39,293 bases of DNA from Paracoccaceae bacterium. Lineage in GTDB: Bacteria; Pseudomonadota; Alphaproteobacteria; Rhodobacterales; Rhodobacteraceae. Both the position numbers and the translations under genes were made by a program. How positions within the stretch are numbered: the stretch's first letter is position 1; each line of letters opens with the position of its first letter. The stretch covers positions 1 to 39,293 of the forward strand of contig JAJFIC010000046.1 in NCBI GenBank assembly GCA_021775315.1, read 5' to 3'. The notes beneath the pieces are model-generated. The model saw nothing but the letters and a program-made list of their open reading frames with translations. It did no database searches and was not told the DNA's origin. Shown here one piece after another: positions 4,872 to 32,675 of the stretch.

Positions 4872-7361
4872 ATGAATTTAACCAACCGCCTCAGAAACAC
4901 AAAAGTCACCGTTGGGATTCTGATTGCATCGCTTATTCCGCTGGTACTGGCCTTTTCTGTCTCTGCGTGGGTGGTGTTTGAAAAAACCAGCGCGGCGCGC
5001 GAAATGGGTCGCCTGCAAAAACTGATCAATCCGATTTCCCTGCTCAGCAATTTGGTGCATGAACAACAAAAAGAACGCGGCCAAACCGCTGTTTTCCTTG
5101 GCAGTAAAGGCAAGCAGTTCGGTGCCGCACTAAAGTCACAACGCAAGGTGACGGACGCAAAAATCGCCAGTTTGAACGAATACCTGACCACCAGTGGAAT
5201 TTCAGATATGAACGTCGAACTTGCGCGCCGTCTGGATGCAATTCTAAAGCAGATGGGTAAAACCCGTGAGGTTAGGGTGCGCGTGGATGCTATGTCCATC
5301 AAGGGCGCCGACGCTATCGCGCATTATACGTCACTGAACGGACAAATACTTGACCTGATCCACCATGTGTCGTTGCTCAGCAACGATGGCGATATCACCT
5401 CAACGACGCTGGCGTTTGCAAGCTTTCTCAAGGGCAAGGAACTTGCCGGGATCGAACGGGCAATCGGCGCGCGTGGGTTTGCCAAAAGTCGCTTCAGCAG
5501 TGAAGAAAAAACGCGGTTTATAACACTTATTGAATCGCAAAATATTCTGTATTCTCAATTTCTTGCCAGCGCGACTGAGGCGCAACAGGAACAGTTTGCC
5601 TTGCTTTTGAAATCAGCCCCGGCGCAAGAGGTTCAGGAAATGCGCGATGTCGTTTTCAAAACCGCCGCCTATGTGAATGCGTGGACCTATTCAAGTTCAG
5701 ACTTTTTCAGCGCGCAAACCAAGAAGATCAATCTGCTGCAAAAGTTGGAGGTCCGATTGTCAAACGATCTGGCCAATTTGATGCAGGCCCATTACGACGC
5801 TGCGATTTTCGATCGCAATATGGTCGCCGGTCTGACAGCCCTGTTGTTTTTGGTTGCACTTGGCCTTTCCCAATTATTCACCCACTCGGTAAAACAGGCT
5901 TTTCGTCGGGTGCTGAAGGCTGCAAACGAACTGGCGGCAGGCGACCTAGATGTTGAAATCCCGGCGAAAACTGACAATGAATTTGGTCAGATCGCCGGGG
6001 CGTTAGAACAGTTCCGTGACAGTATTGTTGCAGGCCAAAAAACCGCGCAGAACATGCGGGAGGCCGAAATTCAGGAACAAAAACGCAAACGCGCCGCAGA
6101 AATCGAAGAATATGACGCGAAAGCAGTCCGCGCGGCTGAACGGGAAACCGAGAAAGAGGTGGTTCATCAAAGGGAACGCGCAATTGCGGCAGAGATTTCT
6201 GCCGTCGTGGCGAAATGTGCCGAAGGGGATTTCAGCGAAAGGTTGTCGACCAGTGACAAAGAAGGCGTGCTGGCTGAAATCTGTCTTGGCGTTAACAAGA
6301 TTGGCGAGGTTGCGAATCATGGCCTCGACCAGATTAAAATAGCGCTTCAGGCTTTGTCGGATGGCAATCTCAACCACAAAATGCAGGGAGAGTTTGACGG
6401 CGTTTTTAATGAAATCCGCAACGTTATGAACGACACCAGTCAAAGCTTGGCACAAAGCGTCGGCCAGATTGGTCAAAGCAGCTCACTAATAGGTGCGTCG
6501 ACCCGCGAATTGGCGGATGCAGCCGGCCATCTTGCGACCCGAACCGAACATTCCGCTGCAACCTTAGAACAGACGGCCGCTGCGATTGAAGTTTTGTCGG
6601 GGCTTGTGACAACCACAGCCGGGTTGACGGTGCAGGCCGACAAAGAAGCGGCTGATATCCGCCGCCGGGCCGAAGAAAGCAACGAGGTTGTGCGCCTTAC
6701 CATCGCGGCAATGGGCGAAATTCAGTCATCAACTGCTGCGATTGGCAAAACAATCACTCTGATCGACGATATTACGTTTCAGACCAACCTTTTGGCCCTG
6801 AATGCCGGTGTGGAAGCCGCGCGGGCTGGCGACGCCGGCCGTGGTTTCGCAGTCGTTGCCTCAGAAGTCCGCGATCTGGCTGCAAGGTCCTCAGAGTCTG
6901 CGCGTGAAATTTCATCGCTGATCGGAATCAGTGAACAACAGGTCAACAAGGGTGTTTCCATGGTTGACCAAACCGGTGCCGCCCTTCAGTCGATTCTTGA
7001 CAGAGTGTCAGGTATCGCGGAACAAATCGCCGACATTTCCATGTCAGCATCTGAGCAATCCAACAGCATATCCGAGATTAACTTGGCGGCGCGCCAATTG
7101 GATAAAACCACGCAGCAAAATGCAGCAATGTTCGAGGAAACAACTGCCACAAGTCTTGCACTGCAACAAGAGACCGATAATTTGGCCCGCGTTATTTCCG
7201 CCTTTGATTTTGAAGGCGGTGGTGACATCAAGAAGCGCGCCGATGGCAGCGTTCCAACATTTCAACGCTCCCAAAACCATGCGGTCGTGCAACAACGCGC
7301 AAGCGGCAATCTGGCGGCGGAACCGCTTTTTGCAGATGAAGATGAATGGAAAGATTTCTAG
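4872..7361 (+). CDS. Methyl-accepting chemotaxis protein with NIT-type sensor domain
   Basis: Chemoreceptor of 829 residues. TM1 is at about 13-36 and TM2 at 317-338. The periplasmic part between them contains the nitrate/nitrite-sensing (NIT) signature: [16 protein letters not shown] at 61-76 and a second helix pair around 177-205 ([21 protein letters not shown]). After TM2 come a HAMP domain (about 340-387), a charged coiled coil (390-440) and two more HAMP-like segments (441-487, 488-530). The signalling domain covers about 530-780, with the hairpin tip at 636-671 ([22 protein letters not shown]). The last residues EWKDF match the WxxF tail that tethers CheR/CheB. AAAGG lies 8 bases before the ATG. 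It probably signals nitrate or another small anion to the flagellar motor; the ligand is inferred from the domain only. Confidence 0.95.
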
Positions 7362-7666: not shown

Positions 7667-9274
7667 ATGTGCATGGATGGCGTCCACAAAAATGATGTAA
7701 ACGCTGGTCATAAGGCAGCCGAACCCAGCGGTGTGAATGCCTCGGCGGAATTGCGCGATCAATGCCTGCACCTCAGACGCGCGGGGCAGGCAGGGCAGGC
7801 TTTGGATCTGGCAAATGCGGCGATTGCCAAGCACCCCAAAGCGATGCGGCCACATCTGGAAAAGGCACTGTCTTTGTCGGCGTTGGGTCAGGACACAGCA
7901 GAGGAGATAAAGGCGTGGTGGGATTGTATCGAAAAATTCCCAAATCAGACCTGGCCGAAATGGTTTGAGAACCTGCGCGCCGCTGTTGAAAAACAACAAG
8001 GAAACCTGAGGTTTAGCACCAATTCAGAAGCGGCCCTTGCTGAAATCGAACGCATTCACACCGCCGCAAGTAAAGCCTGGCCGAATACTGAAGGCACAGA
8101 ATTACCGACAGAGAATCTATCCCCAGACCAAGCCAAAGCCAACAGGGTGCACGAATGGATTCTGGCGGGGCGGGCAAATCTGCGCAGCCAATTGCCAATC
8201 GAAACCGGCGCGCTGGATGCTTGGGATGCGTATTTTGAGCATTATCAGGGCAAGGCGCCGTTCACCTATTATCTGCGATATATTCGGGTGATCGAGCGTT
8301 TTGATCCGCAGAATGCAAAAGACCGGGTTGAAAGGTTGTTCACGCGATCGCAGGAAATCTGGCCGATCGAATTGTTATCAAGCGAACCAAATGACCGACA
8401 TGAAAAACATAACTTGCAAATGGCCAAGTTGCTTTATTTTGAATTGGCACAACGCCTGCTTGCCGATCGACATTTCGACCAGGCGAAAGAGCTATTGGCA
8501 AAATTCACCGGTCAGGACAATCTGAGCCCAATGGCACGCGAGCTTGAACAAATCGCAGATTCACTGGCGCTTTGGACCACTTATAAAGATTTGGCGGCAG
8601 CGGACCCACGGTTCAACGATTACGGCTCGATCATGCCTTGGCGCAGCGAAAACGCCTCGGAAAAAGTGGTGTTTGTTTTTTCTGGCGTCTGTGGAAGGAT
8701 GAGCCTGACACAGTCGTCAATTCATTTGGTGCTGCAAAAACTCGGATGCCACATCGTCTATATCTCGGATCAGAACAACAGCTTTTTTCTGAATGGCACA
8801 GACTGGGAAACCGTGGATCAGTTGTGTCAGAAATTGCGGATAATTGCGCATGAAATGGGGGCCACACGGTTTTTTACACTCGGGAATTCGTCCGGCGGTT
8901 ACGCGGCCTTACTTTACGGTGAAAAACTGGGCGCTGAAAAGGTGCTTGCCGTCAGCCCAATCACCACACCTTTGAAAACCTCATGGCCTTCAACGCAGGA
9001 ATTTTTTGAGGATATGAAGCGACGTCAGCCGGATCTTGTTGCTGATCTTGATGACTATTATGTCAACAGCCCGCAACGGCCAAAGGTCACGATTGCTTTT
9101 GGTGAGAAGAGCATACGTGACCGCAAAGCCGCCGAAGCAATGCTTGTCGTGCCAGACGTCAAGCACGTGATGGCACCGGGGTATTCGCGACATGCCAGTT
9201 TGACTTGGTTTGTGGCGCATAACAAATTTTTACCTTTGCTTCAGGATTTGTTGGACGAACCAAGTGAAGATTGA
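7667..9274 (+). CDS. TPR-like plus alpha/beta-hydrolase-fold protein, unknown function
   Basis: Protein of 535 residues in two parts. Residues about 25-110 form helical, TPR-like repeats (LDLANAAIAKHPKAMRPHLEKAL). A second helical stretch occupies 120-300. The C-terminal 200 residues look like an alpha/beta hydrolase: a KVVFVFSG strand (333-340), the nucleophile elbow GNSSGG (Ser408 in GxSxG), and a late YSRHAS motif whose His509 could be the catalytic base. An acid such as Asp485 is possible. No signal peptide is seen. The ATG at 7667 follows AAAAGGG; an in-frame GTG at 7631 and an ATG at 7673 are alternatives. Its last 11 bases overlap the ABC ATPase gene, so it heads the import/A-T operon. 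It could be a trans-acting thioesterase or amidase for that pathway. No named family was recognised. Confidence 0.75.
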   Translation: MCMDGVHKNDVNAGHKAAEPSGVNASAELRDQCLHLRRAGQAGQALDLANAAIAKHPKAMRPHLEKALSLSALGQDTAEEIKAWWDCIEKFPNQTWPKWFENLRAAVEKQQGNLRFSTNSEAALAEIERIHTAASKAWPNTEGTELPTENLSPDQAKANRVHEWILAGRANLRSQLPIETGALDAWDAYFEHYQGKAPFTYYLRYIRVIERFDPQNAKDRVERLFTRSQEIWPIELLSSEPNDRHEKHNLQMAKLLYFELAQRLLADRHFDQAKELLAKFTGQDNLSPMARELEQIADSLALWTTYKDLAAADPRFNDYGSIMPWRSENASEKVVFVFSGVCGRMSLTQSSIHLVLQKLGCHIVYISDQNNSFFLNGTDWETVDQLCQKLRIIAHEMGATRFFTLGNSSGGYAALLYGEKLGAEKVLAVSPITTPLKTSWPSTQEFFEDMKRRQPDLVADLDDYYVNSPQRPKVTIAFGEKSIRDRKAAEAMLVVPDVKHVMAPGYSRHASLTWFVAHNKFLPLLQDLLDEPSED

Positions 9275-10040
9275 ATTTCGCGGCGTTTCCTTTGGTTATC
9301 AAGGGCAGGGCGGTCCGCAAGTCGTTGACGATTTGAACCTAGAGGTTCCGTCGGGCCAAATGCTGGGCGTCGTCGGGCCCAGCGGATGCGGCAAAACCAG
9401 CTTGCTGCGAATGGTCGCCGGGTTGCAGATGCCGACGACTGGTGAAATTCACTTCACAAATCCAAATGTCGTGGCCCAACCTAAAAGCTTTATGGCATTT
9501 CAGGACAGCGGCCTGTTTCCCTGGCTTTCTGTCCTGGATAACGCCTGTATCGGTCTAGAGGCGCAGGGTGTGGCCAAAACGGTGCGCCAGGGTCAGGTGC
9601 TGGACATGCTTAAACGCATTGATCTGGCCGATGTGGCCGATAAAAAACCCCATGAGTTGTCCGGCGGAATGCGCCAGCGGATTGCTTTGGTCCGACTGCT
9701 GGTCAGCGGTGGTGACATATTGCTGCTGGACGAACCACTTTCAGCGGTCGACGCCCAAACCCGTCGGTTTTTGCAACAAGAACTGCTCGATCTATGGTCC
9801 GCTCAGCCAAAAACCACGATCTATGTCACCCATGATATTGAAGAGGCCTTGACCCTATCGGATCGGGTCGTCGTGTTGTCACGCAATGGTGCGCGCATTT
9901 TGGCCGATATCACGGTCCCAACCCCCAGACCGCGCGTCGCTACGGCCCGCCCGACGCCAGACATTGAACGGCTTCGTTGGGAAATCTGGGCTATGCTGGC
10001 TGAAACTGATCCAAAAAGGGATGGGTCGCAAAATGCGTAA
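9264..10040 (+). CDS. ABC transporter ATP-binding protein (nitrate/sulfonate/THI5 type)
   Basis: Cytoplasmic ATPase of 258 residues with all motifs intact: Walker A GPSGCGKTS (38-46), Q-loop Gln80 in FQDSGLFPWLSV, signature LSGGMRQR (132-139), Walker B ILLLDEP (152-158), D-loop SAVDA and switch His190 (VTHD). The FPWLSVLDN sequence after the Q-loop is typical of the NrtD/SsuB/TauB/ThiZ group. The GTG at 9264 gives the standard N-terminus MKIEFRGVSFGY and overlaps the upstream stop by 11 bases; upstream in-frame codons lie inside the previous gene and are not family-like. The gene overlaps the permease by up to 20 bases. It powers uptake of a small organic solute, whose identity is unknown. 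Confidence 0.94.
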   Translation: MKIEFRGVSFGYQGQGGPQVVDDLNLEVPSGQMLGVVGPSGCGKTSLLRMVAGLQMPTTGEIHFTNPNVVAQPKSFMAFQDSGLFPWLSVLDNACIGLEAQGVAKTVRQGQVLDMLKRIDLADVADKKPHELSGGMRQRIALVRLLVSGGDILLLDEPLSAVDAQTRRFLQQELLDLWSAQPKTTIYVTHDIEEALTLSDRVVVLSRNGARILADITVPTPRPRVATARPTPDIERLRWEIWAMLAETDPKRDGSQNA

Positions 10041-10794
10041 GCTGGCCTGGCAGAACCGCCTTATCGGTGCAATTGTCCCACTTACGCTGGTTATTCTATG
10101 GGAACTGATGTCGCGCAACGGCATGATATCCCAGCTTTTCTTCCCACCGCCCAGCATGATCCTTGCGCGACTTTGGCAATTATCCCTGGACGGTACATTG
10201 CCCGCAAATGTCGGGGCTACCGTTGGGCGTGTCATCGTCGGGGTGCTGATCGGCGGCGGGTTTGGCTTGTTGCTGGGTCTGACCATGGGCATGTCGGCGC
10301 GGATCAATGCCGCCGCCGATGGCCTTGTATCGGTCACGCATCCTTTGCCTAAGATCGCGCTACTGCCGCTGTTTTTGGTGTTTTTTGGCTATGGCGAAAC
10401 GGCGCGACTGGTGCTGGTTGGGCTAAGTGCTGCCTTCCCGATGGTCATTGCGGCGCGTACGGCGGTGCACGGCATCGACCCTTTGTTGATCGACGTCTGC
10501 CAGTCCTACCGCATAACGGGTTTTTTGCGGCTGCGACGCCTGATTTTGCCCGCTTGCCGTCCAGTTGTCCTTGCAGGTCTGCGGTTGGCGATCAATACTG
10601 CTTTGATTGTGGCGATTTCGGTTGAGATGCTTGCCGCTAACAATGGGCTGGGCGCTATTTTGTGGTTCGGGTGGCAGACGATGCGACTTGAAGACATTTA
10701 TGGCGCCCTGTTTGTCATCGGCCTGCTCGGCTATATCGTGAGCAAGGTTATTTCCTGGGCCGAAACGCCCGTCAACAAAAGGACTATCAAGTGA
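10021..10794 (+). CDS. ABC transporter permease (nitrate/sulfonate/THI5 type)
   Basis: Integral membrane protein of 257 residues with about six hydrophobic helices (for example residues 15-31, 68-90, 113-135 and 228-245). The cytoplasmic EAA loop that docks on the ATPase is recognisable as SYRITGFLRLRRLILPACRP at about 161-180, with the conserved Gly and the LPA..P ending. LFFPPPSMILARL near the N-terminus is characteristic of SsuC/TauC/ThiX permeases. The start is ATG 10021 or ATG 10033; AAAAAGGG directly precedes the first and would suit the second better, and both overlap the ATPase gene end. Its stop overlaps the GTG of the binding-protein gene (GTGA). Confidence 0.92.
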   Translation: MGRKMRKLAWQNRLIGAIVPLTLVILWELMSRNGMISQLFFPPPSMILARLWQLSLDGTLPANVGATVGRVIVGVLIGGGFGLLLGLTMGMSARINAAADGLVSVTHPLPKIALLPLFLVFFGYGETARLVLVGLSAAFPMVIAARTAVHGIDPLLIDVCQSYRITGFLRLRRLILPACRPVVLAGLRLAINTALIVAISVEMLAANNGLGAILWFGWQTMRLEDIYGALFVIGLLGYIVSKVISWAETPVNKRTIK

Positions 10795-11744
10795 ATTCTG
10801 TGACCATATCCGGCCTGTTCTCCCTCGCGGTATTGGCCCTGACTGCGGCCCCGGCAGCAAGTGAAGAGGTAAGTGTTGTTGTGCTGCCGTATCTGTCGCA
10901 AGCGCCGATCTTTATCGCCATCGAAGAGGGGATGTTTGAACGCGAAGGCATTACCGTCAACCGCGTTGACATGAAAAGCAGCCGCCCGGTGGTTCCCGGG
11001 ATCATGTCAGGTGAATTTGACATGGCAATGGCGGTGCCGACAGCCGGGTTTTACAACGCAATCGACCGGGGCGGTAAGGGTCGCATCGTCGGTCCGGGGG
11101 TTACGTTTACCGCCGGTTCCTGTGAATATCTGGCCTATTACGGACGCCAGGGATTTGACCGTGACAGCTTTACCACCGGGCAGGAAATGAAGGTCAATCT
11201 CAGTGCTGATGCGATCACGTTTGAAGGTTATCTAAGTGGCCTGATGAACAAAATGCCCGGTGCTGAAAAGCTGAGTTTCGAGTTTCTGGAGATGCCAGCC
11301 TACACCCAAGGCGACGCGCTGACGGCCGGCAGCATTGATGTGGCTTTCACAGCGGAACCATGGGTCACGCGGTTCAACGATGCCGGTTTAGGGCAGGTCA
11401 CGATGGGGGCGTCAGAAATTCTGCCGGACGGGCAATACGGCACCTTAATGTTTTCCGCCCGACTGGCTGACAGTGATCCAGCCCTCGGGGCGCGGGTGAA
11501 ACGGGCGATGGATGCTGCGATAAGCCAGTATAACGAGGGGAAAACCGCGCGAAATCTGGACATTTTGGCAAAGTATACCGGCCTGTCGATTGACGTTATT
11601 AACCGGGCCTGTTGGGCCTCTGTGCCAAGCGACGGCGTGGTGCGCGTTGACAGCCTGATGGCGTATCAGGGCTGGTTGCAGGCCAATGACATCATTGATC
11701 GCGTCATACCCGTCGACGAAATGATTGTTGAGATTGCCAAATAA
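10791..11744 (+). CDS. ABC transporter substrate-binding protein, NMT1/THI5-like
   Basis: Protein of 317 residues with a Sec signal peptide (about 1-24, ending APAAS) and no lipobox Cys. The mature part has the fold typical of SsuA/THI5-like receptors: LSQAPIFIAIEEGMFEREGI at the N-terminus, in which a helix follows the first strand, then GEFDMAMAVPTAGFYNAI (the loop that usually contacts ligand) and the second-lobe GDALTAGSIDVAFTAEPWVTRF. The GTG start overlaps the permease stop by 4 bases and the stop shares one base with the A-T gene start. Relatives bind sulfonates, nitrate, riboflavin-like compounds or thiamine pyrimidines, so the ligand remains open. The adjacent adenylating enzyme suggests a carboxylic acid. 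Confidence 0.9.
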   Translation: MNSVTISGLFSLAVLALTAAPAASEEVSVVVLPYLSQAPIFIAIEEGMFEREGITVNRVDMKSSRPVVPGIMSGEFDMAMAVPTAGFYNAIDRGGKGRIVGPGVTFTAGSCEYLAYYGRQGFDRDSFTTGQEMKVNLSADAITFEGYLSGLMNKMPGAEKLSFEFLEMPAYTQGDALTAGSIDVAFTAEPWVTRFNDAGLGQVTMGASEILPDGQYGTLMFSARLADSDPALGARVKRAMDAAISQYNEGKTARNLDILAKYTGLSIDVINRACWASVPSDGVVRVDSLMAYQGWLQANDIIDRVIPVDEMIVEIAK

Positions 11745-13582
11745 TGATCCCGTTTGACTATTCCGAGGTCGACGGCACCATTGGTGAACGGTTTGTGCGT
11801 GTGGCCAAATCACAGCCAAACGCAATCGCGATTGCGGATGGCGATCGAAGCTGGACCTATCAGGACGTTCTTGATGCATCCGACGCTTATGCAAGCGGCT
11901 TTTCCCGTCTGGCGCAGGGCAAGGCCGCAGCCCTGATCTTCAGCCATAATGCTGAGGCGATCATCGCACTGATGGGGGCGATACGGGCAGGGGTGCCTGC
12001 CATTCCGATTGATCCACAGGCCCCTCCGGCCTCGATTTCCGATTGTCTGGTCGAATGTCAGGTTGTCGTCACCGAAGCGGGTCATGCCGAATGGTGCCGG
12101 GAACAGATCACTGATGTGCCCGTGGCCGTCGGCCCGGATGGGCTTGCGCAGTCCGCTGCAACTCAACATGACGGCCCGTGGCCCGAGGCCACGCCCTATG
12201 GTGCATGCGTCATTTACCTGACTTCTGGAACCACTGGTGGATCAAAAGGCGCCATGCGAACAAACCGGGCTTTGTGCCGCCACGTTTGGCAATTGCCCCA
12301 ATATCATGGCTATGGGCCGAATGACCGTCAGGCGCATATGTCCTCGTTCGCGTTTGGTGGGTCGGTTCCCGTGGTTTTTGGGGGCTTACTGACCGGTGGT
12401 ACGATCGACATTTTCGATATGCGCAAAACTGACGCCGTTGGATTTGCCCGGGCCATCAGGCAAAGGGGCGTCACGATTTTGCAATTAACCCCGTCTTTGA
12501 TGCGCGAACTGGTGGACATTCTGGCCGCGCAAAAGGACGATTGGCAACCGCGATTGATCGTGGTTGGTGGTGAAAAGTTGCATGGGGCCGATTTGCTCGC
12601 CCTGCGCGACAAGCTGGGCTGGAGCTGCCCTGTTGTTCACCGATTGGCCAGCAGCGAGGCCGGGATCATTGCGGAATGGCAGGTTGATTTGAAGGGTCTG
12701 GCGGCTGAAGCCGCCGTTCCCGTGGGCTTTGCCGTCAGAAACCGCGAACTGACCATTGTTGATGATGCAAACCAACCCGTCGCGCCGGGTGAAAACGGTG
12801 AGATCGTGATAACCGGCGACTATTTGGCAAGCGGATACTGGCAACGCCCCGACCTGACCGAAAGTAAGTTCTTTCCTGAACCCCTGCCGGATGCGCCGGA
12901 TCGGCAACGCCTGAAAACCGGGGATTTGGGGCGCCTAAGGGACAATGGACTGCTCGAATTCCTTGGTCGCATGGACAGCCTCGTCAAAATCCGGGGGTAC
13001 CGTGTGGAACTTGGCGCGGTCGAAACCGGCCTGCGCCAGTTGACCGGGGTTTCAGATGCGGCCGTGGTGGTGCAATCCAGTCAGCGCGGGGCCGACTATC
13101 TGGTGGCTTACGTTCAGCGTGGCCGCAATGCGCGTGTAAATGGGTTGGATCTGCGGACGGAACTGCAAAGCCTGATGCCGGAATATATGGTGCCGCGCCG
13201 GGTTGTTGTGCTGGATGAGTTTCCCCTGACCTCGGGCGGCAAACTTGCCCGCAACCGATTGCCAGCCGTTGGCCGGGATCGCCCTGAAGGATTGCCCGAA
13301 ACTGTGGCACCGAAAGGGGACATGCAGTGTCGATTGGCCAAGATTTGGTCCGAGGTGCTCGAGCTTGATGAGATCAGCCAAAGGGATGACTTTTACGACC
13401 TTGGCGGCGACTCGCTTGATGCGCTTCAGGTGGCGATGACCCTGCAAAAACAGTTGGATGTCGAGTTTTTTGAAACGGATTTATTCCTGCATTCCGATCT
13501 GTCGGGTATGGCCGAAACGGCCGAGCACCTGTGCAAGGTGCCGGATAGCGCGCAGCACGACAGTACTACGCTTGGTATTTAA
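11744..13582 (+). CDS. Stand-alone adenylation plus carrier-protein (A-T) didomain, NRPS-like
   Basis: Protein of 612 residues: an AMP-forming adenylation domain (about 10-510) and a peptidyl-carrier domain (about 525-600). Core motifs are A3 YLTSGTTGGSKGAM (158-171), A7 KTGDLGRL (391-398), A8 GRMDSLVKIRGYRVELGAVE (408-427) and A10 PLTSGGKLARNRL with Lys500. The carrier motif DLGGDSLDALQ has Ser557 for the phosphopantetheine arm. The enzyme should activate a carboxylic acid with ATP and load it on its own carrier. There is no condensation, reductase or thioesterase domain. In the pocket, the position of the Asp that binds alpha-amino groups is Gly205 (FGGSV), A5 is the unusual HRLASSEAG, and an Arg (about 300) falls in the pocket region, so an ordinary alpha-amino acid is unlikely. 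It shares its start with the stop of the binding-protein gene. The product pathway is unknown. Confidence 0.92.
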   Translation: MIPFDYSEVDGTIGERFVRVAKSQPNAIAIADGDRSWTYQDVLDASDAYASGFSRLAQGKAAALIFSHNAEAIIALMGAIRAGVPAIPIDPQAPPASISDCLVECQVVVTEAGHAEWCREQITDVPVAVGPDGLAQSAATQHDGPWPEATPYGACVIYLTSGTTGGSKGAMRTNRALCRHVWQLPQYHGYGPNDRQAHMSSFAFGGSVPVVFGGLLTGGTIDIFDMRKTDAVGFARAIRQRGVTILQLTPSLMRELVDILAAQKDDWQPRLIVVGGEKLHGADLLALRDKLGWSCPVVHRLASSEAGIIAEWQVDLKGLAAEAAVPVGFAVRNRELTIVDDANQPVAPGENGEIVITGDYLASGYWQRPDLTESKFFPEPLPDAPDRQRLKTGDLGRLRDNGLLEFLGRMDSLVKIRGYRVELGAVETGLRQLTGVSDAAVVVQSSQRGADYLVAYVQRGRNARVNGLDLRTELQSLMPEYMVPRRVVVLDEFPLTSGGKLARNRLPAVGRDRPEGLPETVAPKGDMQCRLAKIWSEVLELDEISQRDDFYDLGGDSLDALQVAMTLQKQLDVEFFETDLFLHSDLSGMAETAEHLCKVPDSAQHDSTTLGI

Positions 13583-13634: not shown

Positions 13635-13940
13635 CTACTTCTTTTCAGTACAGTTAATCGAGCTTGAATCGGTTTCATAAATCACGACGGTGTGGCCCTT
13701 ATTATAGGACTTAACCATCATTTCCCGGGTGCGCGGAAGGGACCATCGGGTGATGTTACACCACTGTTCTGACGAGCAACTGGCGTTGTAATTCGACTGG
13801 CACCGCGACTGGCTGGTGTACAAAGCCCTGCGCCCATTATCGCCCTGAACCTGCCAATCCGGCGTCAGTGCTAGTGCGGCACTGCCATAGAAAAAGGTTG
13901 AGCCGAGCACAGTCAAAGCAAGGAACCTGGATAAATTCAT
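13635..13940 (-). CDS. Small secreted cysteine-containing protein, unknown
   Basis: Protein of 101 residues with a clear signal peptide (about 1-25, hydrophobic core LALTVLGSTFFYGSAALA) and a mature part with four Cys (47, 55, 61, 97), enough for two disulfides in the periplasm. An excellent Shine-Dalgarno (TTAGGAG) lies about 6 bases before the ATG at 13940, which argues that the gene is real. It is transcribed convergently with the A-T operon, with only 52 bases between. I do not recognise the family. Confidence 0.7.
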   Translation of the reverse strand: MNLSRFLALTVLGSTFFYGSAALALTPDWQVQGDNGRRALYTSQSRCQSNYNASCSSEQWCNITRWSLPRTREMMVKSYNKGHTVVIYETDSSSINCTEKK

Positions 13941-18822: not shown

Positions 18823-18976
18823 GCGAAGTGTTCAGGTCAGAACGAGGGGTGTGTATGCCGGGGCGGCTCCAGATACAAGTGGTTGATGAAAAAAAGCCTT
18901 TGACGCCGGGAAAGTCGCTGGCGTGGCAATTGCGGGCTTGATAGGGTCGCGCAAATTCCTGTCTGGAAGGTCTGAC

Positions 18977-20653
18977 ATGACGCCGAAAGAGGCCCTGAAA
19001 AAAGCCGACGCCGCCTTTAAAGCCGGTGATCCGATGCTGGCGCTGAAATATTATCGTGCGGTTCTTGCGCGTGTTCCGCGCCATTCTGCCGCCCTGAAAG
19101 GCGTGCGGAAAATCGAGAAACGGTTTGAGCTGCCACCTGTTTCACAACAGGATTTTGATGCGGCCGTGCAAATGCTGCAACAACAGAATTTTGCCGGGAC
19201 TGAAACTTTTGTTAACAGTCTGATCCTGCGCAATCCGGCCTTGCATGGCCTTTATAATGTGCGCGGATTGGCCGAGGCCAGTCAGGGCAAAGACACCGCC
19301 GCCATCGCCAGTTTTCGCAAAGCGCTGGATGTGGATCCGACCAGTGCCGAGGCGGCCAATAATCTGGGCCTGAAGCTGAAAGAAACCGGCGATCTGGACG
19401 AGGCTGAAAAAGTTCTGCGTCTGGTTGTTTCGCAGCAACCGCGATATGTTCAGGCGCGTTACAATCTGGCGACAGTTCTGGAGCAAAAAGATCTGCTGGA
19501 CGAGGCCGGGCAGGGCTACAGCAAAGTGCTGGAACAATCGCCAAGCATGGCGTTAGCATGGTTGGCCCAGGGCAAATTACAGGCCGTAAGGGGCGACAAT
19601 GAGCAGGCGCTTGTCAGTCTAGAGGCAGCAATCAAGCACGACCCGAATGGGTTTGAGGCTTATGTTCTGCGCACCCGCCTAAAGAAATTCGACGAAGCGG
19701 ATGGGTTTGCTGACAAGATGGCGGCGATGGCGGTTGAGGTCGCGCGTCCCGTGTTGGAACGCGCGCAGTTGCATTTCGGTCTTGGCAAGATGTTTGAAGA
19801 TTTGGCGGATTACGCCACCTCGTTCACCCATTACGAGGCGGCGAACATCCTGCAAAAAGGCTTGGTGCCGTATTCCGAACGCGAAACCCAAGCGGCGTTT
19901 GCATCCATAAAGGCGGCCTATGCCAAACCTGCGGCAATTGCGCCACTAACCGAAGCACAAAGACCAGTTTTTATCGTCGGCATGAACCGTTCCGGCACCT
20001 CGTTGGTGGAACAGATGCTGGCGGCACATCCAATGGTGCATGGCTGTGGAGAGCTTGAGGCGATCGGGGACTTTGCTGAACAATTGGGCGCGAACCACGC
20101 GGCGGCGGACCCGCAAAAACTGGCGGGCTTTGCCGCCAGCTATCGCGCCTTGCTGGCCAGCAAAACCGACTTGCCGGTGGTCACGGATAAGATGCCCATT
20201 AATTTTAAATGGATCGGCCTGATCCGAACGCTGTTTGCTGATGCCAAGATTATCTATCTTGACCGCGAGGCGCGTGACGTCTGTTTTTCAAACTTCAAGG
20301 CGTCGTTTGAAAGTGTCGGGCATATGTATTGTTACGATCAACGCGATCTTGCCCGGTATTTCGGCCTGCATAAAAACCTGATGTTGCATTGGTCCGAAAT
20401 TTACCCGGATGGATTTTTTAACCTGAATTATCAGGATCTTATCGCGCAACCTGAAACCACGGCGCGGGCGTTGCTGGAATATGTCGGATTGCCCTGGGAT
20501 GACGCGGTGCTTGATTTCCACAAGTCAAAGCGCGCCGTCAAAACCCTGAGCCAAGCCCAGGTGCGCAGCCAGATTTACGCCACCTCGGTCGGTGCGTGGC
20601 AAAATTACGAACCCTATCTGGGGCCTATGCTTGCGGAACTGACGCCGGAATAG
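18977..20653 (+). CDS. TPR-repeat sulfotransferase
   Basis: Protein of 558 residues. Residues about 1-320 are tetratricopeptide repeats, clearest at 90-225 (for example GLAEASQGKDTAAIASFRKAL and the next ALxLKETGDLDEAEK-type unit). The C-terminal 230 residues are a sulfotransferase domain: the 5'-phosphosulfate loop FIVGMNRSGTSLVEQ at 332-346, KMPINFKWIG near 410, and the 3'-phosphate motif YLDREARDVCFSNF near 430-443, which bind PAPS. No signal peptide is seen. Such TPR-sulfotransferases are frequent in alphaproteobacteria; their acceptors, whether protein or glycan, are mostly unknown. The ATG 18977 has GGAAGG 6 bases upstream and was preferred to an in-frame ATG at 18923. Confidence 0.92.
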   Translation: MTPKEALKKADAAFKAGDPMLALKYYRAVLARVPRHSAALKGVRKIEKRFELPPVSQQDFDAAVQMLQQQNFAGTETFVNSLILRNPALHGLYNVRGLAEASQGKDTAAIASFRKALDVDPTSAEAANNLGLKLKETGDLDEAEKVLRLVVSQQPRYVQARYNLATVLEQKDLLDEAGQGYSKVLEQSPSMALAWLAQGKLQAVRGDNEQALVSLEAAIKHDPNGFEAYVLRTRLKKFDEADGFADKMAAMAVEVARPVLERAQLHFGLGKMFEDLADYATSFTHYEAANILQKGLVPYSERETQAAFASIKAAYAKPAAIAPLTEAQRPVFIVGMNRSGTSLVEQMLAAHPMVHGCGELEAIGDFAEQLGANHAAADPQKLAGFAASYRALLASKTDLPVVTDKMPINFKWIGLIRTLFADAKIIYLDREARDVCFSNFKASFESVGHMYCYDQRDLARYFGLHKNLMLHWSEIYPDGFFNLNYQDLIAQPETTARALLEYVGLPWDDAVLDFHKSKRAVKTLSQAQVRSQIYATSVGAWQNYEPYLGPMLAELTPE

Positions 20654-28051: not shown

Positions 28052-28365
28052 GGCTTACGCCTGTCCCATCCAGTTGTGCCGCTTGTTACGGCTATTTGTT
28101 AACTCATCCCCCCAGACGACACATTTATGCCATAAAACGAATCACTGGCCAAGACTAAACTTGGAAACAATGCGTATCGTGCGATCAATTGGCGATTTTC
28201 CGCCAACCCGCCGAATTCCCGCCCGAAACTGAAACAGTCATGGTTTGAGAAGCACAACTTGGGGCGAAAATGCGGCTAGCGGGATCGTGAATAGACTTGG
28301 GAATTGCGCCGACGCAATATATAGTATCAGGAATCTAGCGCATTGATGAGTTTGTGAGGCAGGAA
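28052..28365. other. Divergent promoter region between YcbK-like and L,D-transpeptidase genes
   Basis: About 310 bases with no gene. The strongest signal is a promoter-like pair for the plus-strand gene, described separately. A GANTC site (GAATC near 28331), the CcrM methylation target of alphaproteobacteria, lies just after the -10 box. No obvious promoter was picked for the minus-strand gene. Confidence 0.5.
28297..28325 (+). promoter_or_regulatory. Possible promoter of the L,D-transpeptidase gene
   Basis: TTGGGA (28297-28302), 17 bases, TATAGT (28320-28325). The -10 matches the consensus at five of six positions, and the -35 at four. It lies 40 bases before the chosen ATG. Confidence 0.5.
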
Positions 28366-29988
28366 ATGATAGTCGCAAAGAAGAGTTTATTTTTCACGGT
28401 ATTGCGCGCAAGCGTCATGCTCGGCGTGTTTTTGACCGTATTCTCGCCGCTATTCACATCGACAGCCGTCGCACAAAGTACTGCGTTCAAGCAAGCGGTC
28501 GCATTGGCCGCCGCCAACGATCCTGCGGTTCTGGAATTTTACAAAGAACGGAATTTCAAACCGATCTGGACCGGAAACTCGGATCGCCAGCGTCGCCGCG
28601 CATTTCTTGATGCGGCTTCCAAGGCCTGGGTGCACGGTTTGCCTGCCGGACGTTATGATGCGGCCCAACTGAAAAAAGACTTTGGCGCGATCAAATCGGC
28701 CAAGGCGCGCGGGACTCTGGAAGTCGAAACCTCAAAGAAATTCCTGCAATATGCGCAGGACATTCAGTCAGGTATTCTTGAGCCTCTGAAGATCGACAAA
28801 GAGCTTTACGTCAAGCCACCGCGCCGGGATCGTCTGAAAACTCTGATTGCTTTCACCAAAAGCTCGCCTCAATCCTTTATCAAATCCCTGCCGCCCAAGC
28901 ATCTGGATTACCAGCGCTTGCTGAAAGAAAAGGCCCGGCTTGAAAAGATCGTTGGCCGGGGAGGCTGGGGTCCAAAGGTTGGTGGCAAAGCCCTGAAACC
29001 GGGTCAGAACAACAAGCGTGTGGTCGAGTTGCGCCGCCGTCTGACCGCACTTGGCTATAAAAAGCTGGGCACATCACCGGAATACAACGAGACGTTGCAG
29101 AAATCGGTACAAGTTTTTCAGGTTGATCATGGTCTGAACCCTGATGGGGTTGCAGGCGGCACGACGCTGAAGGCGCTGAACGTATCGGCGCAAACGCGGC
29201 TGCAACAGGTCATCGTCGGGCTGGAGCGTCAGCGCTGGTTGAACAAACCGCGCGGCAAGCGACATATTTTCGTCAATCAGGCCGATTTCCGGGCGCATGT
29301 CATGGATAACGGCAAGCCAACGCTGACCACACGGGTGGTCGTTGGTAAAGCCGGCAAATTCCGCACCCCGGAATTTTCCGATGAGATGACGCATATGGTT
29401 ATCAACCCAACATGGCATGTGCCAAAATCCATCGCGCGCAAAGAATACCTGCCGATGTTGCAGAAAGATCCGAACGCATTGGCGCGTCAGGGGTTAAGAA
29501 TGACTGATGTCAACGGTCAGCGGGTCGATCCGTCGACACTTGATTATTCGCAATATGACGTCACAAACTTTCCATTCGATTTGAAACAACCGCCAAGCCG
29601 TGGCAATGCGCTGGGTCTGGTCAAGTTCATGTTCCCGAATAAATTCAACATCTACTTGCATGACACACCATCCAAATCGCTGTTTGCCCGTGACACGCGC
29701 GCCTATAGTCATGGGTGTGTGCGGGTGCAGAAACCGTTTGAGCTGGCCTATACTTTGCTGAAGCCACTAACCAACGACCCAAAGGGCCTGTTTCATGGCC
29801 ATCTGGATACCGGACGTGAATCGGTGGTCGACCTTAAGGCACCGATCCCGGTGCATCTGGTTTACCACTCGGCTTGGGTGACCTCTGGTGGTCGTCCAAA
29901 TTACCGGGCGGATACCTATGGCCGCGACCGGAAAATTTTTGGCGCCCTGCAAAAGGCCGGGGTGGTCTTGCACGCGGTTCGCAGCTAA
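28366..29988 (+). CDS. L,D-transpeptidase, YcbB/YkuD type
   Basis: Protein of 540 residues. A signal peptide covers about 1-36 (ending STAVAQ). Residues 45-200 correspond to the N-terminal scaffold domain of YcbB-like enzymes, 212-275 are a peptidoglycan-binding domain (KRVVELRRRLTALGY, then SVQVFQVDHGLNPDGVAG), and 298-500 are the YkuD catalytic domain with His432 (YLHDTP) and the motif SHGCVRV, where Cys451 is the nucleophile. The enzyme makes 3-3 (meso-DAP to meso-DAP) cross-links or attaches proteins to the wall in the periplasm. The ATG 28366 follows AGGCAGGA; a GTG at 28354 is possible. Its divergent neighbour also acts on the wall. Confidence 0.95.
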   Translation: MIVAKKSLFFTVLRASVMLGVFLTVFSPLFTSTAVAQSTAFKQAVALAAANDPAVLEFYKERNFKPIWTGNSDRQRRRAFLDAASKAWVHGLPAGRYDAAQLKKDFGAIKSAKARGTLEVETSKKFLQYAQDIQSGILEPLKIDKELYVKPPRRDRLKTLIAFTKSSPQSFIKSLPPKHLDYQRLLKEKARLEKIVGRGGWGPKVGGKALKPGQNNKRVVELRRRLTALGYKKLGTSPEYNETLQKSVQVFQVDHGLNPDGVAGGTTLKALNVSAQTRLQQVIVGLERQRWLNKPRGKRHIFVNQADFRAHVMDNGKPTLTTRVVVGKAGKFRTPEFSDEMTHMVINPTWHVPKSIARKEYLPMLQKDPNALARQGLRMTDVNGQRVDPSTLDYSQYDVTNFPFDLKQPPSRGNALGLVKFMFPNKFNIYLHDTPSKSLFARDTRAYSHGCVRVQKPFELAYTLLKPLTNDPKGLFHGHLDTGRESVVDLKAPIPVHLVYHSAWVTSGGRPNYRADTYGRDRKIFGALQKAGVVLHAVRS

Positions 29989-30009
29989 AACTTCCCTAAC
30001 GGGATGAAC

Positions 30010-30041
30010 GGGCGATCGGGCATTCCCCGGTCGCCCTTTTT
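30010..30041 (+). terminator. Rho-independent terminator after the L,D-transpeptidase gene
   Basis: The stem GGGCGATCGGG / CCCGGTCGCCC (one G-U pair) with a short loop is followed by TTTTT on the plus strand, 22 bases after the stop codon. Confidence 0.8.
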
Positions 30042-30077
30042 CGTGGGCCGGTCATTATTCCTTTGGGATCGGATCTG

Positions 30078-31169
30078 ATGGTTTTGATTTTACGCGATAT
30101 TGCCCAAGCCCTTGGCGCGGAGTGCGTTGGGCAAACCGATATGGCCGTGGCGCGTGCGTCAGAACCGGGCAATGCTGGGCCGGATGATCTGGCGCTGGCC
30201 ATGGATAAATCTTATGCCGATGCGCTGGCACAAGGCCAAGCCCGCGCCGCAGTTTTGTGGCAGGGTGCAGACTGGCAGGCGATGGGGCTACAAGCTGCGA
30301 TTTTCGTCACACGCCCGCGTTATGCCATGGCAGGCATCACCGCAGCCTTCGATCGCCCGCCGGAACTGTCTGTGGGCATTCATTCGACGGCCATTATTGA
30401 TCCAACCGCCAGCATCGGCGCCAATGCCGCCATTGGGCCCTATGTGGTGATCGGGCCGCGCGCTGAAATCGGCGAGGGTGCGCGCCTGATGGCGAATGTC
30501 ACGATTGCTGAGGATGCAAAGATCGGCCCGGATGCTTTGATCTATTCCGGCACAAGGATCGGCTCGCGTGTCTCTATTGGCGCGCGTTTTATCGCCCATT
30601 ACAATGCGGTTGTCGGCAGTGACGGGTTTTCCTTTGTCACGCTCGAACCCCACGCCACAGAAGAGGCGCGGCGCGATTTTACGGCCAGCGGCACCACCAA
30701 GCCGCAAGCCTATAGCAGGATCTGCTCTAACGCGTCGGTGGTGATTGGCGACGATGTGGAACTTGGCGCGTGCTCAACCATTGATAAAGGCACGGTTGCC
30801 GATACAATTATCGGAACGGGCAGCAAGATAGATAACCACGTGCAAATCGGCCATAATGTGCGTATCGGCCAGCATTGCCTGTTATGTGCCCACGCCGCCG
30901 TCGCAGGCTCGACCGTGTTGGGTGACCGGGTTGTTCTGGGTGGCCAGGCCGGGGTTGGCGATCACCTGATCCTTGGCGATGACGTCATTGCGGCTGGTGC
31001 CAGCGCCATTCTGTCAAATGTCCCGGCGGGGCGGGTTATGATGGGCTATCCGGCGATGAAAATGGATCAGAATATCGCGGCCTATAAGGCGCTGCGCCGT
31101 TTGCCGCGTTTGGTTGCCAAGCTCGACGCGCTGCAAGCGAAGGTTTCAAAGCTGGATGACAAGCCCTAA
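30078..31169 (+). CDS. lpxD: UDP-3-O-acylglucosamine N-acyltransferase (LpxD or close paralogue)
   Basis: Protein of 363 residues. An N-terminal uridine-binding part (about 1-95) is followed by left-handed beta-helix hexapeptide repeats (about 96-330: [21 protein letters not shown] and so on). The LpxD landmarks VVGSDGFSF and [14 protein letters not shown] (His of GHNV is the catalytic base in LpxD) are present. Between them lies an extra 15 or so residues ([16 protein letters not shown]), not usual in typical LpxD. It transfers a hydroxyacyl chain from ACP to UDP-acyl-glucosamine in lipid A synthesis. Here it is not in the usual lpxD-fabZ-lpxA set but is followed by an ACP and a KAS gene. 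The ATG 30078 was chosen over a TTG 15 bases upstream. Confidence 0.85.
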
Positions 31170-31203
31170 GCGGTAGCGGCGCAAACTGAAAAGGACCTTT
31201 TTG

Positions 31204-31470
31204 GTGTCTGTGAAAGATCAAGTTCTTACAATCATTGCCCGGCAAGCGCTGGTTGATGTCTCGGACCTCAAGCCCGAAACAACGCTTGATGCGCTTGGCA
31301 TCGACTCGTTAGGTCTTGTTGAGGCCGTCTTTGCGATTGAGGAAACATTTGACATTTCTGTGCCTTATAACGCCAACCAAACCCGCGACGATGTGGTAGA
31401 GGGCGAGTTTAACATCACCAATATCGCAGCGATCGTGGCAGCCGTCGAAGGACTGGTAGCCAACGCATGA
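31204..31470 (+). CDS. Acyl carrier protein
   Basis: Protein of 88 residues with the ACP fold. The phosphopantetheine site is GIDSLGLVEAVFAIEE, with the Ser in DSL, followed by an acidic helix. Acidic residues dominate helix II as in fatty-acid ACPs, but length and sequence differ from housekeeping AcpP, so this is a specialised ACP. GTG 31204 has AAGGA about 8 bases upstream; TTG 31201 and GTG 31210 are alternatives. It lies 34 bases after the lpxD-like gene and overlaps the KAS gene by 4 bases (ATGA). Confidence 0.9.
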   Translation: MSVKDQVLTIIARQALVDVSDLKPETTLDALGIDSLGLVEAVFAIEETFDISVPYNANQTRDDVVEGEFNITNIAAIVAAVEGLVANA

Positions 31471-32675
31471 AACGTGTGGTCATCACCGGGCAGGGCACAA
31501 TCAACGCCCTTGGTCGGAACGTGGCCCAGACACATGCCAGCCTAAGCGAAGGCCGCCTTGGCATCGGGCCAATGCAGTTTCAGGATATCGACCGCCTGTC
31601 GATCAAGATCGGTGGGCAGGTTCAGGATTTCCAGCCCGAGGATCATTTCAACCGGCAGGAAATCTCGCTTTACGACCGGTTCACGCAATTTGCGCTTTAT
31701 GCAGCGCGCGAGGCGATTGCCCAATCAGGGCTTTCGTTCACCGATGAACTGGCGGCGCAGTCCGGCGTGGTTCTTGGCACTGCTGGTGGTGGTTTACAGA
31801 CGCAGGATGAAAACTATCGCTCGGTCTATGAGGCAGGCAAAAACCGCGTGCATCCCTTTGTCGTGCCACGCCTGATGAACAATGCCGCCGCCAGCCATGT
31901 GTCGATGGTGCATAATCTGCAAGGCCCCAGTTTCACCGTCGCCACCGCCTGTGCGTCCAGCAATCACGCGATGGGCCAGGCGTTCAATCTGATCCGATCC
32001 GGCATGTCCAAGGTGATGGTCACCGGCGGGTCCGAGGCGATGTTGTGTTTTGGCGGTATCAAAGCGTGGGAGGGGCTGCGCGTGATGTCCCCTGATGCGT
32101 GTCGTCCGTTTTCCGCTGATCGAAATGGCATGGTGCAGGGCGAAGGGGCCGCGATATTCGTGTTTGAGGAATATGAACACGCCCGCGCCCGCGGGGCCGA
32201 AATACTGGCCGAACTGGCCGGTTTTGCCATGACCTCGGACGCCAGTGACATTGTGATGCCATCGCGCTTAGGGGCTGCGCGCGCGATGCGTGGCGCGTTA
32301 CGTGACGCGGGGCTTGCGGCAGATCAGATCGGTTATATCAACGCGCATGGCACGGGCACCGCTGCCAATGACAAAACCGAATGCGCCGCTGTGTCCGATG
32401 TTTTTGGCGCACATGCTGATCGGGTGATGATTTCGTCGACCAAATCCATGCACGGCCATCTGATCGGCGCGACTGGCGCGGTGGAATTGCTGGCTTGCAT
32501 ACTGGCGCTGAAAAACGGAATTATCGCCCCGACAATCAGCTACCGCGAACCTGACCCGGAATGCGCCCTTGACGTGGTCCCGAACGAGGCGCGCGAAGCG
32601 AAAGTCAGTGCCGTTCTGACCAATGCATTTGCATTTGGCGGGCTGAACGCGGTGCTTGCCCTAAGGGCGGTATAA
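31467..32675 (+). CDS. Beta-ketoacyl-ACP synthase, KAS II (FabF) type
   Basis: Condensing enzyme of 402 residues. The catalytic triad is visible: Cys162 in VATACASSNHA, His294 in NAHGTGTAANDKTE and His331 in KSMHGHLIGATGA, with Lys326 before it. The thiolase fold is complete. It elongates acyl chains on ACP by decarboxylative Claisen condensation. Normal FabF is encoded next to acpP in the fab cluster; this one is paired with a specialised ACP and an LpxD-like acyltransferase, so it probably builds a dedicated acyl chain. The ATG overlaps the ACP stop. Confidence 0.92.
   Translation: MKRVVITGQGTINALGRNVAQTHASLSEGRLGIGPMQFQDIDRLSIKIGGQVQDFQPEDHFNRQEISLYDRFTQFALYAAREAIAQSGLSFTDELAAQSGVVLGTAGGGLQTQDENYRSVYEAGKNRVHPFVVPRLMNNAAASHVSMVHNLQGPSFTVATACASSNHAMGQAFNLIRSGMSKVMVTGGSEAMLCFGGIKAWEGLRVMSPDACRPFSADRNGMVQGEGAAIFVFEEYEHARARGAEILAELAGFAMTSDASDIVMPSRLGAARAMRGALRDAGLAADQIGYINAHGTGTAANDKTECAAVSDVFGAHADRVMISSTKSMHGHLIGATGAVELLACILALKNGIIAPTISYREPDPECALDVVPNEAREAKVSAVLTNAFAFGGLNAVLALRAV

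What the first reader, a model, noticed from the sequence alone, without database searches (positions are those of the whole stretch)
7667..13582. Five-gene operon pairing an ABC importer with an A-T didomain and a TPR-hydrolase
The sequence shows five plus-strand genes with overlaps of 4-20 bases or a shared stop/start: a TPR plus alpha/beta-hydrolase protein, an ABC ATPase, permease and NMT1/THI5-like binding protein, and a stand-alone adenylation-carrier didomain. From family knowledge, A-T didomains load acids on carriers, and GxSxG proteins can release or transfer them. I infer a system in which an imported acid is adenylated, loaded on the carrier and processed by the hydrolase. I know of no named pathway with this set.
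Basis: partly seen in the sequence, partly recalled or inferred. Interest (0 to 1): 0.75.

Follow-up and report, generated by a model that had tools for sequence, protein, structure and literature searches.

The report
Importer operon with carrier-loading enzyme pair
Five tightly packed genes encode an uptake pump, an enzyme that activates a small acid and holds it on its own carrier arm, and a probable off-loading enzyme; relatives of the off-loading enzyme often sit beside carriers in other bacteria, while the link to the pump is seen only in this genus and needs a bench test.

Summary
Five plus-strand genes at 7667-13582 overlap by 11, 8 (or 20), 4 and 1 bases: a TPR-like plus alpha/beta-hydrolase protein, ABC ATPase, permease, NMT1-like binding protein, and an adenylation-thiolation (A-T) didomain with intact motifs.

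The hydrolase has no Pfam catalytic family, but its Ser-Asp-His set is invariant in all 13 aligned sequences. Carrier genes lie near relatives in 7 of 40 loci, then beside 5 of 8 new loci from a second scan, against 1 of 20 control stretches. The first set alone is not significant (p 0.18); the second is (p 0.003). Six of these 12 loci also have an AMP-forming ligase, at least four a P450. All 13 linked rows, the window's included, lie on one side of the hydrolase tree.

The importer link is not general: none of the 48 hydrolase-family loci has the binding protein. Its support is one congener, where binding-protein and A-T genes still overlap and evolve under purifying selection (dN/dS 0.06, 0.11). 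There the binding-protein gene is cut at its 5' end by a repeated sequence, and the other three genes were not found.

The A domain lacks Asp235, so an alpha-amino acid is unlikely. Ligand, substrate and product are unknown.

The parts
7667..9274 (+). TPR-like helical N-terminus plus alpha/beta-hydrolase domain (GNSSG; Ser420-Asp497-His521 counted from GTG 7631); proposed thioesterase or acyltransferase acting on the carrier
   Evidence: carrier genes near relatives
9264..10040 (+). ABC importer ATPase (nitrate/sulfonate/taurine-type group)
   Evidence: Pfam ABC_tran 3.2e-30; best NCBIfam models SaoA, PhnT2, PotA, taurine, all below cut-off
10033..10794 (+). ABC importer permease (SsuC/SaoP-like)
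   Evidence: Pfam BPD_transp_1 2.5e-15; NCBIfam SsuC and SaoP about 110 bits, below cut-off
10791..11744 (+). Substrate-binding protein, NMT1-like, with an N-terminal stretch that reads by eye as a signal peptide
   Evidence: Pfam NMT1_2 7.8e-13; weak match (E 0.002) to solved nitrate/bicarbonate transporter chains; 89% ortholog in G003
11744..13582 (+). Stand-alone adenylation-thiolation didomain; pocket code GGPQVGRIIK (no Asp235); LGGDSLD attachment site
   Evidence: 82% ortholog found in G003 only

Best explanation
The operon is a small type II NRPS-like carrier pathway with its own uptake system. Shown here: the gene set, its translational packing, intact adenylation and carrier motifs, an intact Ser-Asp-His set in the hydrolase, and the recurrence of this hydrolase family near carriers, in several cases in tight cassettes with an AMP ligase. 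Inferred: the A-T protein activates a non-alpha-amino carboxylic acid, possibly one with an acidic group because an Arg lines the pocket, and holds it as a thioester on its own carrier; the TPR-hydrolase docks on the carrier and releases the acyl group as free acid or passes it to a second acceptor. Inferred with less support: the NMT1-type importer brings in the acid or its direct precursor.
For: Overlapping genes. A3, A5-Glu, A7, A8, A10-Lys and GGDSL motifs present (motif names recalled). Two PPTase-family (PF01648) matches over cut-off in the genome. Hydrolase relatives near Pfam-confirmed carriers: L135; L166; L146, L149, L150, L151, L164; L204, L206, L207, L208, L209. Cassettes P450 - carrier - hydrolase - AMP ligase in L208 and AMP ligase - P450 - carrier - hydrolase in L209. 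A-T didomain with a hydrolase-bearing ORF and an ACP in L151. Counts: 7 of 40, then 5 of 8, against 1 of 20 controls; one-sided Fisher 0.18 for the first set, 0.003 for the second (0.009 with Azospirillum counted once), 0.05 for both. Tree: 13 of 24 rows on the window's side carry the link, 0 of 16 on the other. SBP and A-T co-retained in G003 with dN/dS 0.057 and 0.105 at dS near 1.
Against: The first neighbourhood set alone does not differ significantly from controls, and AMP-ligase matches alone are no commoner there than in controls (7 of 40 against 3 of 20). The second scan was made with a query alignment that already held two Azospirillum proteins from carrier-linked loci. No importer SBP near any relative. 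G003 keeps A-T, but the hydrolase, ATPase and permease were not found in its assembly, so A-T may work without them, or that copy is decaying. The hydrolase gene is poorer in G+C than its neighbours (50.9% against 55.7-58.1%), so it may have joined later. The best relatives are only about 25-35% identical and the window's row has no starred grouping in the tree. The AMP ligases of the relatives mostly match DIP2/FAAL-like C-terminal models and are far from the NRPS-type A domain here (17-23% identity).
Confidence: 0.5

Rival explanations
1. The A-T protein and hydrolase form a carrier pathway, and the ABC importer is a nutrient uptake system whose ligand is unrelated to the A-T substrate; they share a transcript for regulation only or by chance insertion.
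For: No importer SBP next to the other hydrolase-family loci examined; the importer family is broad; a chemoreceptor with a NIT nitrate/nitrite domain lies just upstream.
Against: Binding-protein and A-T genes overlap in both genomes that have them and both are under purifying selection; the importer genes lie between the two enzyme genes.
Confidence: 0.28
2. The hydrolase is an acyltransferase rather than a thioesterase: it passes the carrier-bound acyl group to a second carrier, a glycan or a protein (as CmaE does between carriers).
For: Relatives in L164 and L166 sit in operons with a glycosyltransferase and pyruvyl-transferase-like genes; L135 and L136 lie near annotated glycosyltransferase genes.
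Against: No acceptor gene is apparent in this operon; the nucleophile is Ser in GNSSG and the listed top fold matches are a putative thioesterase, S-formylglutathione hydrolases, esterases and lipases. A Ser triad does not exclude transfer: LgnA has one.
Confidence: 0.15
3. The operon is a decaying remnant in this genus; gene order is historical and the set has no joint function.
For: A-T ortholog in only 2 of 10 genus genomes (two of the ten are under 85% complete); in G003 the operon is cut inside the SBP gene by a repeated sequence.
Against: All five frames intact in the window; dN/dS 0.06-0.11 at dS near 1 for the two genes that can be compared.
Confidence: 0.07

Closest known systems
NikP1 (didomain) and NikP2 (type II thioesterase) of nikkomycin biosynthesis (passages of PMC4147253 seen)
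   Same: A didomain NRPS holds one building block and a discrete hydrolase frees it.
   Different: NikP1 handles a histidine-derived building block; here the A domain lacks Asp235, no oxidase lies in the operon, the hydrolase has no Pfam thioesterase match and has a TPR-like N-terminus, and an importer is present.
CmaA/CmaE (coronamic acid) and LgnB/LgnA aminoacyl shuttles (passages of PMC8748450 seen)
   Same: A-T didomain plus a discrete enzyme that takes the acyl group from the carrier; LgnA has a Ser-Asp-His triad.
   Different: They pass amino acids on to further carriers of larger pathways; no such carrier lies in this operon. No importer in the passages seen.
Carrier - hydrolase - AMP ligase cassettes found here in Mangrovicella, Aromatoleum MAG and Comamonadaceae MAG (L207, L208, L209)
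   Same: Homologous hydrolase beside a carrier and an AMP ligase.
   Different: Stand-alone carrier; ligase far from the A domain here (20-23% identity); P450 confirmed in two of the three (other neighbours in L207 not scanned with Pfam); no importer SBP or permease found.
SsuABC/TauABC/NrtABC-type importers
   Same: ATPase, permease and binding protein of this superfamily.
   Different: All NCBIfam matches fall below cut-off; ligand cannot be named.

Membership tests
NRPS A-T didomain | AMP-binding, AMP-binding_C and PP-binding domains over Pfam cut-offs | tested here: met
   184.7, 33.6 and 51.1 bits against 29.9, 24.5 and 20.8
NRPS A-T didomain | Catalytic Lys of A10 and carrier Ser in GGDSL | tested here: met
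   GGKLARN at 498, LGGDSLD at 553
Alpha-amino-acid-activating A domain | Asp at pocket position 235 | tested here: not met
   Gly at residue 205 in the window and in G003; Asp in 38 of the 53 rows aligned; the 53 hold 3 copies of the window protein, some loci twice, and 6 divergent ligase rows whose columns are unsure. Role and numbering of Asp235 recalled.
Type II thioesterase family | Pfam Thioesterase match | tested here: not met
   No alpha/beta-hydrolase family up to E 0.001; with the limit at 10 only Ndr, at 0.054 for the hydrolase half
Alpha/beta-hydrolase superfamily | Fold and Ser-Asp-His triad | tested here: met
   Triad residues invariant in 13 of 13 sequences, window included; Foldseek E down to 5.4e-7, prob 1.00, target TM 0.58, on a model with mean pLDDT 67.7, 80-95 in most blocks of the hydrolase half
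Enzyme acting on carrier-bound thioester | Turnover of an acyl-carrier substrate | not testable with these tools
   Only gene neighbourhood supports it
SsuABC/TauABC/NrtABC importer | NCBIfam curated cut-off | tested here: not met
   Best 202.3 against 360 (ATPase), 110.7 against 347 (permease), 27.5 against 163.5 (SBP)
ABC importer of the NMT1-type class | ABC ATPase, BPD permease and NMT1-like SBP in one operon | tested here: met
   Domains, gene junctions; that they form one transcript was not tested

The most novel reading that the evidence does not exclude
A type II NRPS loading module with a dedicated importer: an external, non-amino, probably anionic acid is taken up by its own ABC system, adenylated at once onto the partner A-T protein and freed or passed on by a member of an unnamed carrier-acting hydrolase family. 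This would be uptake wired to carrier loading within one operon.
Probability: 0.3. Interest if true: 0.65.

Novelty: new variant of a known kind. Interest (0 to 1): 0.45.

Why it matters
An alpha/beta-hydrolase group without a Pfam catalytic family appears to be a recurrent partner of stand-alone carriers, AMP ligases and P450s in Alpha- and Betaproteobacteria. That gives a testable function for genes now labelled hypothetical (as the plasmid relatives are). If the importer link also holds, the binding protein gives a short cut to the substrate: its ligand can be found by thermal shift and then tried on the A-T protein.

Tried and rejected
Looking for orthologs of the A-T protein outside the genus: apart from the own genome, the matches reported for 390 order genomes and 398 phylum genomes were NRPS-like, 28-39% identical (limits 1e-60 and 1e-70, only three candidates scored per genome; the draws overlap and did not report G003, so they are samples). 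Plasmids: at most 33.5% in the 15 rows listed, under 60% in all 1859 records. The first genome-contig scan gave no relative. SBP relatives in 92 of 385 class genomes, own included, were weak (best identity of the others 39%, over 85-90 residues); I fetched the surroundings of four of them (G625, G345, G500, G478) and found no A or carrier match.

A specific importer ligand from family models: rejected, all below cut-off. ATPase-like matches occur in 13 of 48 distinct hydrolase-family loci and 7 of 20 controls, so they say nothing. Folding the SBP alone: useless model, mean pLDDT 31.7. DltA-like D-alanine loading: far below the model's cut-off (193 against 560). FAAL: the window A domain's best solved relatives are NRPS A domains. 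Promoter and terminator scan: no signal over shuffles.

Limits of the neighbourhood test. I built the stand-alone carrier profile (acp2) from carriers found in some of the same loci, so its hits there are partly circular; the 12 carriers I rely on were all confirmed with Pfam, but the loci without a hit were not scanned with Pfam. The 20 controls, from 17 of the same genomes and on long contigs only, were scanned with the same profiles. Several relatives lie on short contigs or near contig ends, where a carrier could be missed. One place (G539), which matches only the TPR part, was not fetched. One locus counted as not linked (L159) has a carrier 4.7 kb away on the other strand. The query of the second scan held two Azospirillum proteins from carrier-linked loci, and two of its five linked loci are Azospirillum. 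In the tree, rows under 95 bits or with fewer than about 120 aligned residues (nine of the 40 loci, and L211; none with a same-strand carrier) and the duplicate L203 were dropped; the branch between the two sides has support 91/99 and is not starred; four linked rows are Azospirillum near-copies, so independent linked lineages are about ten.
Full report
1. The observation. The window lies in an alphaproteobacterial genome of 3.69 Mb in 111 contigs; the class follows because a same-class genome used here, G482, has a contig of the same length as Stella sp. ATCC 35155 (5,339,096 bases). Five plus-strand ORFs run from 7667 to 13582 without a gap. Overlaps are 11, 8 (or 20), 4 and 1 bases. This packing is an operon by ordinary criteria, though no transcript was tested. 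Pfam gives ABC_tran, BPD_transp_1, NMT1_2 and AMP-binding + AMP-binding_C + PP-binding; the first protein has only a sub-threshold TPR match. The unit ends at 13582; the next ORF taken as a gene (13635-13940) is on the other strand. Upstream is a chemoreceptor with a NIT domain (4872-7361), about 300 bases away.

2. The A-T protein. The core motifs looked for are all present. Its nearest solved relatives are NRPS A domains. Mapped through the LgrA alignment, with GrsA numbering recalled, its pocket code is GGPQVGRIIK; the G003 ortholog has GGPQVGRVIK. Position 235 is Gly, not Asp. Of 53 A-domain rows aligned, 38 have Asp there; the 53 include three copies of the window protein, some loci twice, and six divergent ligase rows whose columns are unsure. 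An alpha-amino acid is therefore an unlikely substrate; passages of two reviews (PMC11253843, PMC11837247) were looked at for this and did not settle it. The Arg at position 322 hints at an acidic group; this is a guess. Two PPTase-family matches are present in the genome, so the carrier can probably be primed.

3. The hydrolase. No Pfam, NCBIfam or PHROG family matched its catalytic half at the limits used, apart from a weak Ndr match (E 0.054). Relatives exist: 25 of 295 family genomes, 10 of 385 class genomes and 2 of 10 genus genomes had a match at E 0.001 or better, the window's own genome counted in each, and 3 plasmid records at E 1e-5; outside the own copy they are 22-43% identical, and all but one (G539, TPR part) match the C-terminal half. 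In an alignment of 13 sequences, window included, the Ser of GxSxG, an Asp and a His are invariant. A model built with seven relatives has mean pLDDT 67.7 overall and 80-95 in most blocks of the hydrolase half; Foldseek finds alpha/beta-hydrolases (a putative thioesterase first, then S-formylglutathione hydrolases), and the N-terminal half is helical but of low confidence.

4. What the relatives sit next to. I fetched the surroundings of hydrolase relatives: 40 loci in all, with flanks up to about 10 kb where the contig allowed, and 20 control stretches from 17 of the same genomes. A carrier on the same strand within 7 kb was found in 7 of 40 loci, against a carrier anywhere in 1 of 20 controls (one-sided Fisher 0.18). 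AMP-ligase matches alone were no commoner than in controls (7 of 40 against 3 of 20, any strand). A second scan of named genomes returned nine loci, one a duplicate; 5 of the 8 new ones have a carrier directly upstream of or overlapping the hydrolase ORF (Fisher 0.003 against the same controls, 0.009 with Azospirillum counted once). Both sets together give 12 of 48 (Fisher 0.05; 0.12 with Azospirillum counted once). Pfam confirmed all 12 carriers. Six loci (L151, L164, L166, L207, L208, L209) also have an AMP-forming ligase and at least four (L164, L166, L208, L209) a P450; not all neighbours were scanned. In L208 the order is P450 - carrier - hydrolase - ligase, with hydrolase and ligase sharing four bases; in L209 it is ligase - P450 - carrier - hydrolase. 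In a tree of 40 rows, one side of a branch (24 rows with the window, support 91/99, not starred) contains all 13 linked rows; the other side (16 rows) contains none (12 of 23 against 0 of 16 without the window, Fisher 3e-4; the split was chosen after seeing the tree). The window's own position inside its side is unresolved. On that side 11 of 24 rows show no carrier, among them two Stella copies (L147, L148). My reading: the carrier link belongs to one part of the family, the part that holds the window's protein.

5. The importer. Its three proteins belong to the sulfonate/nitrate/taurine-type group but pass no NCBIfam cut-off, so no ligand can be named. Among 48 distinct hydrolase-family loci no SBP relative and one permease relative (L170, a distant family member without a carrier) were found at E 1e-4; ATPase-like matches were as common in controls. 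The A-T ortholog is present in G003 and in none of the eight other congeners. In G003 the SBP gene (89% identical) overlaps the A-T gene (82%) by four bases, in the window by one; dN/dS, by a Nei-Gojobori script of my own, is 0.057 and 0.105 with dS near 1. The G003 contig then ends in a sequence of which 140 bases recur at the start of two other contigs, which reads as a mobile element inserted in the signal-peptide part of the SBP gene; the hydrolase (protein and DNA search) and the ATPase and permease (DNA search) were not found in that assembly. So SBP and A-T have stayed together under selection over a long time, while the present G003 copy looks damaged or is cut by the assembly.

6. Mechanism. 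Best supported: the acid is adenylated and loaded on the carrier (family knowledge plus motifs), and the hydrolase acts on that thioester (neighbourhood evidence). Thioesterase and acyltransferase are both open; known precedents for each are NikP1/NikP2 and CmaA/CmaE (passages of PMC4147253 and PMC8748450). The step 'importer brings the acid' is plausible and unproven.

7. Print. Nine full-text searches were answered and one was rejected for a sign in a term. Searches looked for this combination; three of them returned no paper, and no title or abstract start listed by the other three describes it. Most subscription journals are not in that library, so this is weak evidence of absence.

8. Verdict. 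Real gene cluster; a known kind of chemistry (A-T didomain plus discrete alpha/beta-hydrolase) with an unnamed hydrolase group and an importer that makes it a new variant. Interest 0.45.

Noticed in passing
window 4872-7361 (+): Chemoreceptor with a NIT (nitrate/nitrite-sensing) domain and two HAMP-type domains directly upstream of the operon, same strand; the importer superfamily includes nitrate transporters, so a shared ligand is possible.
   Followed up: no
window 18923-20653 (+): TPR plus sulfotransferase protein after a tRNA-Ser gene on the other strand; one hydrolase relative (L136) also lies near an annotated sulfotransferase gene.
   Followed up: no
window 28354-32675 (+): L,D-transpeptidase, LpxD-like hexapeptide protein, a small ORF that matches my carrier profile (31177-31467) and a ketosynthase in a row; looks like a lipid A very-long-chain acyl block (label recalled).
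   Followed up: no
L087 1584-6215 (own genome, contig C59): 1543-aa protein with formyltransferase, AMP-binding in two pieces around a luciferase-like monooxygenase, and a carrier, with a PPTase-family match close by. ORFs of 1505-1565 aa matched the A-T query in ten of the 61 genomes, this one included; domain content was checked only here.
   Followed up: partly
L021 10900-11068: Contig end of G003 inside the SBP gene; 140 bases of it recur at the start of contigs C28 and C30.
   Followed up: partly
L164 8551-17830 and L166 8511-17041: Two genomes of the window's family carry similar operons: TPR-hydrolase, methyltransferase, pyruvyl-transferase-like gene(s), AMP ligase, P450, ACP, glycosyltransferase. 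It looks like a pathway of its own; I did not search print for it beyond.
   Followed up: partly
window 13635-13940 (-): Small ORF with an apparent signal peptide (by eye) and no Pfam family, convergent with the operon.
   Followed up: no
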